Made by a program: the position numbers and the translations under genes. 64,000 nucleotides of DNA, taken from the NCBI RefSeq assembly GCF_009729055.1, contig NZ_CP045484.1:2552872-2616871 (forward strand), read 5' to 3'. The notes beneath the pieces were generated by a model, which was not told where the DNA came from, did no database searches, and saw nothing but the letters and a program-made list of their open reading frames with translations. The stretch is from Sulfurisphaera ohwakuensis. Lineage in GTDB: Archaea > Thermoproteota > Thermoprotei_A > Sulfolobales > Sulfolobaceae. Of the stretch, positions 38,466 to 61,201 are shown piece by piece (the first letter of the stretch is position 1; every line of letters starts with the position of its first letter).

Positions 38466-38622
38466 GTAAGATGTTATAGTCTCATAAGACTAGTCTAGTA
38501 AGACTAGTTTATAAAGATTTTATAAAGTTTAGGGGTTCAAAGGGGGCGAAAAACCTCGCCAGTGGGGATGGATAGCCCCCTTTGTAGAAATATTTTTTAA
38601 TCCACTCTCGAACATTTTATTA

Positions 38623-39855
38623 ATGCCCAACGTAGGGTTCCGCTTTCGTGCGTATGCTGACGATCAAACAATTAGGGCGTTAAAAGCCCAGTTGAGGTTA
38701 GCATGTGAGATGTACAACACCCTACGCTGGGCAGATATCTATTTCTACCAAAGGGACGGAAAGGGTCTTACACAAACGGAGTTAAGACAGCTCGCTCTAG
38801 ATCTAAGAAAGCAAGATAAGGAGTACCAACAACTCTACTCACAAGTAGTACAGCAAATTGCCGATCGTTATTACGATGCTAGGGATAGGTTCTTCAAAGG
38901 TCTAGCACACTTTCCTAAGGAGAAGAAACCCCATAAGTACTACTCTCTTGTTTACCCACAAAGTGGATGGAAAATACTTGAGAGCAGGGAAATAAGGACT
39001 AAGAGTAGGAAGAGTAAGAAGAAGCTGGTGTTATTGAGGTTATCAAATCTCGGCGTGTTTAAGGTCATTGTTCATAGGGACTTCCCGCTTGACAAAGTAA
39101 AGAGGGTGGTAGTTAAACTAACACGTTCAGAGAGAGTATATGTCTCCTTCATAGTTGAAGGTGTTGGATTCCCTCAACTCCCAAAGACTGGTAAGGTAGT
39201 TGCAATAGATGTTGGGATAGAGAAACTCTTAACCACGAGTGATGGATTCTATTTCCCTAACTTGAGACCTTATGAGAGGGCACTTGAGAAGATAAGGAAA
39301 CTCCACAAGGTTCTCTCGAGGAAAGAGTTCTTGTCGAAAAATTGGTTTAAAGCAAAAGTGAAGTTAGCTAGGGGTTATGAACACTTGAAGAACTTGAGAC
39401 AAGACCTCTATATGAAGTTGGGTAAGTGGTTTGCACAACATTATGACGTTGTAGTAATGGAGGATATAGATGTTAAACAACTGGTGGAGGAGTCAGAAAG
39501 GAAGTTGAGGATGAGGTTGCACGATGTTGCATTCCATGAGTTGAAGAGAATACTAGAATATCAGTTGGAAAAATATGGAAAGAAACTGTTGTTAATAAAT
39601 CCAGCATATACTTCAAAGATGTGTGCTAAATGCGGGTACGTAAAGAAAGAGTTAACTTTGACTGACCGTGTGTTCAGCTGTCCTAAGTGCGGTTGGGTTA
39701 CTGATCGTGACTATAACGCTTGCTTAAACATATTGAAGAGATCGGGGTGGGAGCCATCCTTAGTGCCTGTGGAGCTCCACCCTCTACCCGTAGCGAAAAG
39801 CTACGGGCAAGGTGGGGCTATGAAGCAGGAAGCTCCGCCCTTCAGGGCGGGGTAG
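38623..39855 (+). CDS. tnpB: TnpB RNA-guided nuclease, copy 1
   Basis: 410 residues. RuvC residues are D196 ([14 protein letters not shown]), E280 ([10 protein letters not shown]) and D363 ([12 protein letters not shown]). The zinc ribbon is C334/C337 and C353/C356 (CAKCGY ... CPKCGW). The N-terminal wedge part ([20 protein letters not shown]) is complete. TnpB proteins use the RNA from the 3' end of their own element to cut DNA and help retain the element. The last 35 residues ([20 protein letters not shown]) are encoded by the RNA scaffold region. It differs from copy 2 at about seven residues, and all catalytic positions are kept. Confidence 0.95.
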
Positions 39856-39860
39856 CTCAC
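39700..39860 (+). ncRNA. Probable omega RNA of TnpB copy 1
   Basis: The 3' end of tnpB and the right end of the element contain two strong hairpins: CCCGTAGC-GAAAA-GCTACGGG region (39787-39807), and AGCTCCGCCCTTCAGGGCGGGGTAGCT (39832-39858, described in part). In known TnpB systems the RNA scaffold ends at the element border and the bases beyond it are the guide, here AACTCTAAGCCCCTAAAG. The 5' limit is a guess. Confidence 0.55.
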
Positions 39861-53429: not shown

Positions 53430-53590
53430 GTGAGCTACCCCGCCCTGAAGGGCGGAGCTTCCTGCTTCATAGCCCCACCTTGCCCGTAGCTTTTCGCTAC
53501 GGGTAGAGGGTGGAGCTCCACAGGCACTAAGGATGGCTCCCACCCCGATCTCTTCAATATGTTTAAGCAAGCGTTATAGTCACGATCAGT
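53430..53590 (-). ncRNA. Probable omega RNA of TnpB copy 2
   Basis: Mirror of the structure in copy 1: GCTACGGG/CCCGTAGC hairpin and CCGCCCTTCAGGGCGG hairpin next to the element border at 53430. The bases just beyond the border, TTTTGATATCCTTAGCC in gene sense, would be the guide. The 5' limit is a guess. Confidence 0.55.
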
Positions 53591-54667
53591 AACCCAACCA
53601 CACTTAGGACAGCTGAACACACGGTCAGTCAAAGTTAACTCTCTCTTTACGTACCCGCACTTGGCACACATCTTTGAAGTATATGCTGGATTTATTAACA
53701 ACAGTTTCTTTCCATATTTTTCCAACTGATATTCTAGTATTCTCTTCAACTCATGGAATGCAACATCGTGCAACCTCATCCTCAACTTCCTTTCTGACTC
53801 CTCCACCAGTTGTTTAACATCTATATCCTCCATTACTACAACGTCATAATGTTGTGCGAACCACTTACCCAACTTCATATAGAGGTCTTGTCTCAAGTTC
53901 TTGAAGTGTTCATAACCCCTAGCTAACTTCACTTTTGCTTTAAACCAATTTTTCGACAAGAACTCTTTCCTCGAGAGAACCTTGTGGAGTTTCCTTATCT
54001 TCTCAAGTGCCTTCTCATAAGGTCTCAAGTTAGGGAAATAGAACCCATCACTCGTGGTTAAGAGTTTCTCTATCCCAACATCTATTGCAACTACCTTACC
54101 AGTCTTTGGGAGTTGAGAGAATCCAACACCTTCAACCATGAAGGAGACATATACTCTCTCTGAACGTGTTAGTTTAACTACCACCCTCTTTACTTTGTCA
54201 AGCGGGAAGTCCCTATGAACAATGACCTTAAACACGCCGAGATTTGATAACCTCAATAACACCAGCTTCTTCTTATTCTTCCTACTCTTAGTCCTTATTT
54301 CCCTGCTCTCAAGTATTTTCCATCCACTTTGTGGGTAAACAAGAGAGTAGTACTTATGGGGTTTCTTCTCCTTAGGAAAGTGTGCTAGACCTTTGAAGAA
54401 CCTATCCCTAGCATCGTAATAACGATCGGCAATTTGCTGTACTACTTGTGAGTAGAGTTGTTGGTACTCCTTATCTTGCTTTCTTAGATCTAGAGCGAGC
54501 TGTCTTAACTCCGTTTGTGTAAGACCCTTTCCGTCCCTTTGGTAGAAATAGATATCTGCCCAGCGTAGGGTGTTGTACATCTCACATGCTAACCTCAACT
54601 GGGCTTTTAACGCCCTAATTGTTTGATCGTCAACATATGCACGAAAGCGGAACCCTACGTTGGGCAT
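53435..54667 (-). CDS. tnpB: TnpB RNA-guided nuclease, copy 2
   Basis: 410 residues. Differences from copy 1 include YVDDQ for YADDQ, RKNKK for [14 protein letters not shown] for [15 protein letters not shown] for ERALEK, EHFK for EHLK and VKREL for VKKEL. The three RuvC acidic residues (D196, E280, D363) and the four zinc Cys are unchanged, so both copies are probably active. Because no Y1 transposase is present, TnpB activity may serve mainly to keep the element in place (known for the family). Confidence 0.95.
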
Positions 54668-55051
54668 TAATAAAATGTTCGAGAGTGGATTAAAAAATAT
54701 TTCTACAAAGGGGGCTATCCATCCCCACTGGCGAGGTTTTTCGCCCCCTTTGAACCCCTAAACTTTATAAAATTTATATCATTATACATCCCCTATCCGC
54801 CTGGATTATTATTATATCCTAAATAACATAGATAAAATACTAATTATTTCTATTTTTTTAAATGAAAAAAGCTACTTATTCTTTTCAGTTTAAGGGAATA
54901 TTTAAACTTGTACTTTCTACCAATAATAGTCTGACTTTCATAAATTCTTTCTATATCAGAAATGTGAAAAGGAAAATATTCTCTTTTCAAATGAAAGAAA
55001 AAGAGTATTATGAGGAAAACTTTATAAATTAATTATTCTGTTATTATATTG

Positions 55052-58438: not shown

Positions 58439-58842
58439 GGCTTTTTAGAATTGTTGTAGGAAAAAGTTCATTGTAAGTGATATTATTTTTCTTTTTAAAA
58501 ACTGGAAGCGCTTAGCGTAAGCGTAAAGCCAGATTATACGTGAATAGTAATTTAAGGAAATTCCCTCACCATAAAAGATTAGAATATTTGCTTTTGAACT
58601 AATAAAAACTTTTATTTCATTCCCTTGTTTCATCTTTAATATAAAACGAAATTTTTAGTTAACTAAACAATATTTCTTATACATTTTAACGTAACGTAAA
58701 AATGAAGCGATTTTCCTATAAGTGCTAACGTGGAGTGCTCTAAAACAGTCATGAATTTTTATCAAGAGAGCAAAGAATATGTAACTAATTTTACGTGGTT
58801 AGAAAGGGTTGCATGGAGTTAGTTGAAGTTCATGAAAATCAA
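58439..58842. other. Non-coding stretch
   Basis: No convincing gene; a 62-codon minus-strand frame (58445-58633) lacks family signals. ATTTTAACGTAACGTAAAAATG (58682 onward, in part) contains a direct CGTAACGTAA repeat. Nothing more is seen. Confidence 0.45.
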
Positions 58843-59143
58843 CTTATATAAAACATATTAGTCAGATCTGTGTAATACAGATCTGACTGGGGTGAAGACC
58901 GTTGACTTCCTTGGGCTCGAAGTTCGATGTGGAGTTTGGCCCGCTTCCAAACCGGAAGTTGGGTTTGAAGCCCGAATAAGGGTAAATTTGGAGGACCCAG
59001 TCGCGGGAAATAGGTATAAGATAAATTCGTAATGTATTATAATAAACCCTTTAACGCTAGTGAGTAAAAAGCTGGTTTCATCACTTGCGTAAGTAGTGTG
59101 GACTATGCTTGATTTTCAAGGAAAGGTTTTTATACCGGAAGCT
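58843..59143 (+). mobile_element. 301-bp internally deleted derivative of the IS110-type element
   Basis: It starts CTTATATAAAACATATTAG and ends TTTTTATACCGGAAGCT, the same ends as the full element at 59688-60876. It keeps the whole 5' non-coding RNA region and about 45 bases of the start of the recombinase gene, then joins the last 45 coding bases and the 3' end; about 890 bp are missing. Without a recombinase it could move only with help from the full copy. It lies 545 bp upstream of it in the same direction. Confidence 0.85.
58861..58980 (+). ncRNA. Bridge-RNA-like region of the deleted IS110 derivative
   Basis: The 27-base hairpin GTCAGATCTGT-GTAAT-ACAGATCTGAC (58861-58887) is unchanged. 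GACTTCCTT (58904-58912), ACCGGAAG (58951-58958) and ATAAG (58976-58980) match the guides of the full copy. The hairpin of the target loop is damaged (GGGCTCGAAGTTCG) and the right-target guide reads GTGGAG rather than GGGGAG. Target guides do not match its own flanks. Confidence 0.5.
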
Positions 59144-59265
59144 CTCTGGCTTGAGAGAAAGCTTGTGCAACAACCTCCTAATGATATGAGACATCATTCT
59201 TATATTTTAATATTGTATACAAATGCTTCCATAAAGGGCGTTAGCGGTTAAACTATTTCCAAAGT

Positions 59266-59640: not shown

Positions 59641-59705
59641 CTTAAGTTAAGTAGATATTATGTGTTATCCAAACACTATCTGACTTCCTTATATAAAACA
59701 TATTA

Positions 59706-59837
59706 GTCAGATCTGTGTAATACAGATCTGACTGGGGTGTAGGCCGTTGACTTCCTTGGGCTTGAAGCCCGTCGGGGAGCTTGGCCCGCCTCCAATTCGG
59801 ACCGGAAGTTGGGCAAAAAGCCCGAATAAAACATAAG
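59706..59837 (+). ncRNA. Probable bridge RNA of the IS110 element
   Basis: A perfect 11-bp hairpin (59706-59732) is followed by two internal loops topped by hairpins GGGCTTGAAGCCC (59758-59770) and GGGC-AAAAA-GCCC (59811-59823). Guide matches: TGACTTCCTT (59748-59757) equals the left flank 59681-59690; GGGGAG (59774-59779) pairs with CTCCCC at the right junction (60875-60880); ACCGGAAG (59801-59808) equals the right end (60867-60874); ATAAG (59833-59837) pairs with CTTAT at the left end (59688-59692). This is the layout known for IS110 bridge RNAs: target loop first, donor loop second. Confidence 0.7.
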
Positions 59838-59848
59838 GGTGAGTATAC

Positions 59849-60799
59849 ATGGAGGCCCCAGTCGCAGGAATAGACGTATCAAAAGATAAATTAGTAGTAT
59901 ATTTCCAAGGCAAATACTACGAGTTTCCTAATGATAGGCAAGGTTATGAGGAGATAATTAAGATCTTGCCTAAGGGTTGTAAAGTGGGTATTGAAAGTAC
60001 TGGAATTTACCACATTAACCTAGCAAAGTACTTGATGGGAGAGTATGACGTTAGGATTATTAATCCCTTCATACTCAAGAAGTTCAAGGATTTTAGGGGT
60101 AAGAAGAGTGATAAGAATGATGCTAAAAAGCTTGCTGAACTAGTTGTAAGTATGGGTAGTGAGTTTACAACAAGTGATGCTAGGGAGTTAACTAGCCAAT
60201 GGGATTTTGTTACTAGGAGTATTGCTAGGGTTAAGAATAGGTTGAGGAGGGATTTGACACTTTTGGGCTATAAGGATAGTTTGTCCAAGAAGAACTTAGA
60301 GGAGGTTTTGAGGGGTGGGGATAGTATTGTCTTGGTTGAGGTTAGGTTTCTTTTGGAGGAGTTGGAGAGACTTGAGGTTAGGAAGAGGGAGATTGAGGAG
60401 AAACTTGAGGATCTTGTTCCCAAGGATAGTTTGATTTTCACCATTCCTGGTATTGGTAAAACCTTGGGTTGTATAATTTTGGCTAGGGTTGGTGATATTA
60501 GGCGCTTTAGTGATAAGAAGAGGTTTGTTGCTTATTGCGGTCTTGACCCAGTTATTGAGTCTAGTGGTAAGAGTGTTGTTTCTAAGGGTATTTCTAAGAG
60601 GGGTGATGCTGTTTTGAGGAGAGCTTTCTATCTTGCAGCTTTAACTGCTATTAGGGTTAATCCTGTTATCAAGCGTTTTTATGAAGAGCATAAGGGAAAG
60701 TTGAAGGGTAAGAAGTTGATTATTGCCTGTGCAAGGAAATTAGCTGTTATTACTTGGGCTGTGCTGTATTATAATAAACCATTTGATGCTAGCGAGTGA
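59849..60799 (+). CDS. IS110-family DEDD recombinase
   Basis: 316 residues. N-terminal RuvC-like domain with D9 (GIDVSKDKL), E49 (VGIESTGIYH), D88 and D91 (KKSDKNDAKKLAEL). A coiled coil (about 160-195) follows, then the Tnp_20 domain (IFTIPGIGKTLGCIILARVG, FVAYCGLDPVIESSGKS, RRAFYLAALTAIRVNP) with the conserved Ser. Members use a bridge RNA to pair donor and target DNA. The ATG is preceded by a ribosome site (GGTGAG). All expected residues are kept, so the enzyme is probably active and could move the 301-bp derivative too. Confidence 0.95.
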   Translation: MEAPVAGIDVSKDKLVVYFQGKYYEFPNDRQGYEEIIKILPKGCKVGIESTGIYHINLAKYLMGEYDVRIINPFILKKFKDFRGKKSDKNDAKKLAELVVSMGSEFTTSDARELTSQWDFVTRSIARVKNRLRRDLTLLGYKDSLSKKNLEEVLRGGDSIVLVEVRFLLEELERLEVRKREIEEKLEDLVPKDSLIFTIPGIGKTLGCIILARVGDIRRFSDKKRFVAYCGLDPVIESSGKSVVSKGISKRGDAVLRRAFYLAALTAIRVNPVIKRFYEEHKGKLKGKKLIIACARKLAVITWAVLYYNKPFDASE

Positions 60800-60876
60800 T
60801 AAGGAGAGCCTTACTTTTCCATAAGTAGTGTGGACTATGCTCGATTTTTCATGGAAAGGTTTTTATACCGGAAGCT

Positions 60877-61201
60877 CCCCACCCTGGAAGGGTCGGGGGT
60901 TCCCTTCCAGAGGGTTCATCGTTCCCACCATCGATTCGGGATTACATCTCTCATTTGGTGGGCAGTCGGGTGGGGCAGAGACCCACCCCCAAAATTAGAG
61001 TAGGGGATCCGTCATCCATATTGTCCGAATCCCGTGAAAGAGAGAAGAGGAATGATAGTTGCCCCTCCCTCAGTCCCATCGAGCTGGGGAAGAGCGTCAT
61101 TAACATCACTAAAAGATATCTCGATAAAGGGGTTATATAAATATAAGGGGGCTATCCATCTCCACCCTGAAGGGTGAAGCTTTCCGCCCCCTTAACCCCC
61201 A
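60877..61201 (-). mobile_element. tnpB-type element relic interrupted by the IS110 element
   Basis: In minus sense, bases 60880-60940 translate to DGGNDEPSGREPPTLPGWG, a typical C-terminal tail of TnpB proteins that overlaps the RNA scaffold. Strong hairpins follow (ACCCTGGAAGGGT; GGGTGGGG-CAGAGA-CCCACCCC). At the other side AAGGGGGC ... GCCCCCTT (61145-61193) is the left-end hairpin of the same element class (compare 45542). Most of the gene is gone. The right border (CTGACTTC, before 59688) lies on the other side of the IS110 element. The stretch is far more GC-rich than its surroundings. Confidence 0.7.

What the first reader, a model, noticed from the sequence alone, without database searches (positions are those of the whole stretch)
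58843..59143. A 301-bp IS110 derivative that keeps the RNA and both ends but no recombinase
The derivative retains the RNA hairpin, donor guides (ACCGGAAG, ATAAG) and both element ends, while about 890 bp of coding sequence is gone. It has the form of a MITE of an RNA-guided recombinase. Its target guide loop is partly mutated (GTGGAG in place of GGGGAG) and does not match its flanks, so it either arrived with an earlier guide or used the RNA of a complete copy.
Basis: partly seen in the sequence, partly recalled or inferred. Interest (0 to 1): 0.7.

Follow-up and report, generated by a model that had tools for sequence, protein, structure and literature searches.

The report
Recombinase-less IS110 elements carrying guide RNA
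The 301-bp stretch is one of at least a dozen stripped-down copies of an RNA-guided jumping gene (IS110 family) scattered through hot-spring archaea; they have lost the enzyme gene but keep the ends and their own guide-RNA region, so they probably jump by borrowing the enzyme of complete copies.

Summary
Window 58843-59143 is a precise insertion of a 299-bp unit plus CT core, with both ends of the 1,189-bp IS110 element at 59688-60876, a bridge-RNA (bRNA) region with intact donor guides, and no recombinase. Uninterrupted paralogues of its target repeat show the empty site. It is not a lone local deletion: paired ends in related genomes are bimodal, 13 at 270-317 bp and 38 at 1,087-1,189 bp, none between. 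Twelve small copies keep the bRNA region; they lie at different sites in four genomes of two genera. The window copy's closest relative is a 312-bp copy in another genus. Small copies form several lineages with at least two deletion origins. Their two most variable blocks are the two target guides. Several carry guides matching their own flanks; one site fits all 14 scored positions of another small copy's guide. Complete copies with open recombinase genes coexist. Best reading: non-autonomous, MITE-like IS110 elements carrying their own bRNA, moved by recombinase in trans. The window copy's left guide does not match its flank, so its own insertion is unexplained. I found no description in the literature held; movement itself is inferred.

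The parts
58843..59143 (+). Small non-autonomous IS110 derivative (299-bp unit plus the second CT core)
   Evidence: precise insertion shown by uninterrupted paralogues of the target repeat
58843..58863 (+). Left end CTTATATAAAACATATTAGTC: core CT, right-donor half, TATA-like box
   Evidence: identical to the left end of the complete copy; promoter role inferred
58860..58888 (+). Hairpin AGTCAGATCTG/CAGATCTGACT at the 5' side of the bridge-RNA region
   Evidence: sequence; folds
58903..58911 (+). Left target guide plus core, TGACTTC-CT
   Evidence: alignment column of the left target guide; does not match the own left flank AAATCAA
58928..58934 (+). Right target guide TGTGGAG (would pair with CT-CCACA)
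   Evidence: the same guide matches its target exactly in a complete copy of G002 (L158)
58951..58958 (+). Left donor guide ACCGGAAG
   Evidence: identical to the right element end at 59134-59141
58976..58980 (+). Right donor guide ATAAG, reverse complement of the left end CTTAT
   Evidence: sequence
59026..59036 (+). Deletion scar joining the first codons of the recombinase gene to its last codons
   Evidence: junction comparison; same form as in the 312-bp copy of G024 (L056)
59127..59143 (+). Right end TTTTTATACCGGAAG-CT
   Evidence: identical to the complete copy
58751..58842 (+). Left part of the target repeat (multi-copy in G000 and G002) interrupted by the small element
59144..59178 (+). 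Right part of the same target repeat
59688..60876 (+). Complete IS110 copy, 1,189 bp, possible source of recombinase in trans
   Evidence: its guides TGACTTC-CT / CGGGGAG match its flanks TGACTTC-CT-CCCC at all positions scored
59849..60799 (+). Intact IS110 recombinase gene, 316 aa
   Evidence: Pfam PF01548 and PF02371; NCBIfam NF033542; PDB matches ISCro4 and IS621

Best explanation
The 301-bp element belongs to a group of non-autonomous, MITE-like derivatives of one IS110 element of Sulfolobaceae. They keep the two ends (donor site) and a bridge-RNA region, and have lost the recombinase gene. Shown: precise insertion at a CT core; multiple copies at different places in several genomes of two genera; lineages made only of small copies; intact donor guides in the window copy; target guides that vary far more than the rest of the small element; target guides that match the own insertion site in several small copies; open recombinase genes in complete copies of the same genomes. 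Inferred: the small copy transcribes its bridge RNA from the left end, the RNA joins recombinase made by a complete copy, the small element circularises by its donor guides and is inserted where its target guides (or those of another copy's RNA) direct it.
For: Bimodal sizes: 13 paired-end elements of 270-317 bp, 38 of 1,087-1,189 bp, none between. Different flanks at every small copy. Empty-site paralogues with a single CT core. The relative G002 lacks the small element at the orthologous place. Tree: small copies cluster far beyond shuffled labels (5 changes, shuffled mean 10.6, 0 of 500 as low); window copy pairs with L056 of another genus (96/86); L170 and L106 pair (100/99); L122, L123, L124, L130 group (88/100). 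In small copies the two guides are the most variable 8-column blocks, 0.45 against 0.15 differences per site, 0 of 100,000 permutations. Own guide against own flank: small copies exceed shuffles among themselves (P = 0.008); L106 27 of 28 points, L126 24 of 28, L124 23 of 28, L170 left guide 16 of 18. Uninterrupted copies of L126's target repeat include TGAGAACA-CT-CCCC, which fits both of its guides (L276). Open recombinase genes of about 316 codons in G000, G002, G016, G024, G044 and G045. Precedent: IS621 recombines a 298-bp RE-LE donor carrying its bRNA in plasmid assays, and also works with bRNA in trans (PMC11208160); ISEc11 and ISEc21 move when the non-coding RNA is supplied in trans, and ISEc11 ends with cargo move when transposase and RNA are both in trans (PMC11187229).
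Against: No two small copies are nearly identical, so recent movement is not seen. The window copy's left guide does not match its flank. Only 4 of 11 small copies match their own guide at P < 0.01, against 29 of 36 complete copies, so many small copies may be old and decaying. Against the pool of all flanks the combined guide test for small copies is weak (P = 0.086; left guide alone 0.018). No covariation support for the RNA fold in small copies. Transcription and mobility were not tested.
Confidence: 0.82

Rival explanations
1. Each small copy is an independent internal deletion of a complete copy at a deletion hotspot (short repeats near both ends of the gene), and none moved afterwards.
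For: At least two origins are forced by supported branches; junctions lie near short shared words such as GTAT; L126 groups with a complete copy (L139); L171 is a clear separate deletion without bRNA.
Against: Lineages that hold only small copies at different sites; the window copy and L056 share junction and other changes across two genera; no intermediate sizes.
Confidence: 0.12
2. Small copies move, but only with the bridge RNA of complete copies; their own RNA is not functional.
For: The window copy, L130, L056, L107 and L128 do not match their own guides; bRNA in trans works experimentally.
Against: L106, L126 and L170 match their own sites in whole or in the left half; the left guides of L106 and L170 are not found in any complete copy examined; guide columns are hypervariable among small copies.
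Confidence: 0.2
3. Small copies spread by gene conversion or duplication of the repeats they sit in, not by transposition.
For: Several sit in multi-copy repeats, and L056, L106 and L170 sit in related targets.
Against: Members of one lineage (L122, L123, L124, L130) lie in unrelated flanks; flank similarity of L056, L106 and L170 is limited to a short stretch.
Confidence: 0.05

Closest known systems
IS110-family elements with bridge RNA (IS621, ISCro4; Durrant et al. 2024, PMC11208160)
   Same: Recombinase family PF01548/PF02371 in the parent, RNA region upstream of the gene, CT core, separate target and donor guides
   Different: The small element has no recombinase gene and would depend on another copy; archaeal host
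Engineered minimal IS621 donor (298-bp RE-LE with bRNA) and ISEc11/ISEc21 trans assays (PMC11208160, PMC11187229)
   Same: Ends plus RNA region as the moving or donor part, enzyme supplied from elsewhere
   Different: Built in the laboratory; here the arrangement occurs naturally and in many copies
Sulfolobus MITEs SM1-SM4, SMN1 and SM3A
   Same: Short non-autonomous elements in the same group of archaea, thought to be moved by transposases of complete elements
   Different: SMN1 is linked to ISC1733 and SM3A to ISC1058, not described as IS110 in the text read (PMC3718332); no guide RNA described. The original SM1-SM4 paper was not available

Membership tests
IS110 family | DEDD and Transposase_20 recombinase in the parent element | tested here: met
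   Pfam and NCBIfam matches above cut-offs, PDB matches to IS621 and ISCro4
IS110 family | Recombinase gene in the element itself | tested here: not met
   Longest open stretch in the small copy is 56 codons; it is a derivative, not an autonomous member
IS110 family | Non-coding region between left end and gene with target and donor guides | tested here: met
   Guides match flanks in 29 of 36 complete copies; donor guides of the window copy match its ends
IS110 family | Insertion at a CT core | tested here: met
   Empty-site paralogues show one CT, the inserted copy has one at each end
IS110 family | Bridge RNA is transcribed and bound by the recombinase | not testable with these tools
   No RNA or protein data
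MITE | Short, no transposase gene, several copies at different sites, ends of an autonomous element | tested here: met
   13 copies of 270-317 bp in five genomes
MITE | Terminal inverted repeats and target-site duplication | tested here: not met
   Ends CTTATATAAAAC and ACCGGAAG are not inverted repeats; only the 2-bp core is repeated. Hence called MITE-like
MITE | Moved in trans by the autonomous relative | not testable with these tools
   Needs an experiment or strain comparison

The most novel reading that the evidence does not exclude
The small elements are self-standing guide-RNA parasites: they carry and evolve their own target guides, redirect the IS110 recombinase of complete copies, and can direct each other's insertion (L056 lies in a site that fits all 14 scored positions of L170's guide).
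Probability: 0.45. Interest if true: 0.78.

Novelty: new variant of a known kind. Interest (0 to 1): 0.62.

Why it matters
It would be a natural case in which the enzyme and the guide RNA of a bridge-RNA system have come apart, with small elements supplying their own guide and donor to someone else's recombinase. It gives natural minimal donors, a set of natural guide-target pairs from thermophilic archaea, and a way to study how guides change between jumps.

Tried and rejected
Local deletion after tandem duplication: rejected, because the neighbouring complete copy is not the closest relative and the target repeat has uninterrupted paralogues. Small copy L123 as an old insertion shared with G022 and G016: the loci there hold unrelated sequence. 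Covariation in small-copy RNA: none beyond shuffles. Rfam: no match near threshold. Plasmid, phage and viral collections: no match. A 37-aa reading of L056's target gave no Pfam family. The first version of the guide test used one fixed register and lost matches with a one-base shift (L126); it was redone with two registers.

Full report
What is there. The window belongs to a 2.80-Mb archaeal genome (G000). A relative of the same genus, G002, has one contig of 2,694,756 bases, the size I remember for Sulfurisphaera tokodaii; G020 shares a contig length with Metallosphaera yellowstonensis MK1. So this is Sulfolobaceae; genus names other than Metallosphaera are my inference. At 59688-60876 lies a complete IS110 element of 1,189 bp with an intact 316-aa recombinase. 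At 58843-59143, same orientation, lies the small copy: same left end, hairpin, guide region and right end, with 888 bp missing between the first and last codons of the gene.

It is an insertion. Joining its flanks and searching showed that it interrupts a dispersed repeat of about 125 bp. Uninterrupted copies in G000 and G002 mostly read ...AACAA-CT-CCCC..., with one CT; the window has ...AATCAA-CT[element]CT-CTCT.... In G002 the orthologous region has flanking matches but no small element.

It is one of many. Searches of the family found small paired-end copies in other genomes. Collecting every left end with a right end within 1.5 kb in the loci fetched gave 51 elements: 13 of 270-317 bp and 38 of 1,087-1,189 bp, with none between. 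Small copies: G000 one, G002 one (L171, without bRNA region), G024 four, G044 six, G045 one; further broken ones were seen in G044, G045 and G020. One copy (L140) has lost its first bases and one (L128) has a damaged right end.

Relationships. On the shared end regions the small copies do not form one clade, but they cluster strongly. Small-only groups are L107 with L170 and L106 (G024; 97/87), the window copy with L056 (G000 and G024, two genera; 96/86), and L122, L123, L124, L130 (G044, G045; 88/100). Junctions differ between groups. I read this as a few deletion events followed by spread of the deleted forms.

Guides. Using the bridge-RNA rules of Durrant et al. (PMC11208160), the guides of complete copies match their own flanks far better than shuffled ones (none of 20,000 shuffles as good) and 29 of 36 match at P < 0.01. 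Among small copies the match also exceeds shuffles within the group (P = 0.008), but against all flanks only the left guide is above chance (P = 0.018; combined 0.086). Single cases are clear: L106 27 of 28 points, L126 24 of 28, L124 23 of 28. Uninterrupted copies of the repeat in which L126 sits include TGAGAACA-CT-CCCC in G024 (L276), fitting both its guides. L056 does not match its own guide but fits all 14 scored positions of L170's guide in the same genome; both sit in related targets, so this shows that L170's RNA could direct an insertion there, not that it did. L126's left guide also occurs in a complete copy of G045 (L139); the left guides of L106 and L170 were not found in any complete copy examined.

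Guide turnover. In nine aligned small copies the most variable 8-column blocks are the left and right target guides (0.45 against 0.15 differences per site; 0 of 100,000 permutations). This fits guides that change while the rest stays, but part of it could come from separate origins out of complete copies with different guides.

The window copy itself. Its donor guides are intact. Its left target guide does not match its flank; its right guide TGTGGAG is found with an exactly matching target elsewhere (L158 of G002). Seven of 36 complete copies, including one in the same genome (L014, flank AGATCAA-CT), also fail to match their guide at P < 0.01. How the window copy came to this site is not settled: earlier guide, RNA from another copy, or a weak match.

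Source of enzyme. Complete copies with open reading frames of about 316 codons exist in G000, G002, G016, G024, G044 and G045.

Known or new. The held papers on bridge RNA and seekRNA contain no natural non-autonomous IS110 element by the terms searched, and a 2024 review of prokaryotic MITEs does not mention IS110. A 2007 review of archaeal insertion sequences (PMC1847376) could not be opened, and the 2001 paper on Sulfolobus non-autonomous elements was seen only as a citation. So novelty is probable, not proved.

Noticed in passing
L021 1501-1563 (G000:C1:1054618-1054680); L228-L231 (G044): About 63-bp palindromes made of two left ends head to head, each side flanked by what looks like a left target half, as if two inverted copies fused at the left-end hairpin.
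   Followed up: partly
L269 256-4463 (G024:C2:604055-608263): A left and a right end of this IS110 lie 4.2 kb apart with no IS110 recombinase between them; the interior holds two short genes that resemble a HEPN/nucleotidyltransferase pair (my reading of the translations) and others. The place is orthologous to the 309-bp small copy of G045.
   Followed up: partly
L171 1500-1769 (G002:C1, about 1179878-1180147): A 270-bp derivative with the left end joined directly to the last part of the recombinase gene, without guide RNA.
   Followed up: partly
window 58545-58728: A dispersed repeat of about 185 bp with dozens of copies in G000 and G002, just upstream of the target repeat.
   Followed up: no
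window 38511-39860 and 53430-54779: Inverted repeat of 1,350 bp, 99% alike, holding a gene that looks like TnpB (53435-54667; my reading).
   Followed up: no
window 60875-61000 and many complete copies: Complete copies often sit next to the same sequence CTCCCCACCCTGGAAGGG, which looks like the end of another multi-copy element.
   Followed up: no
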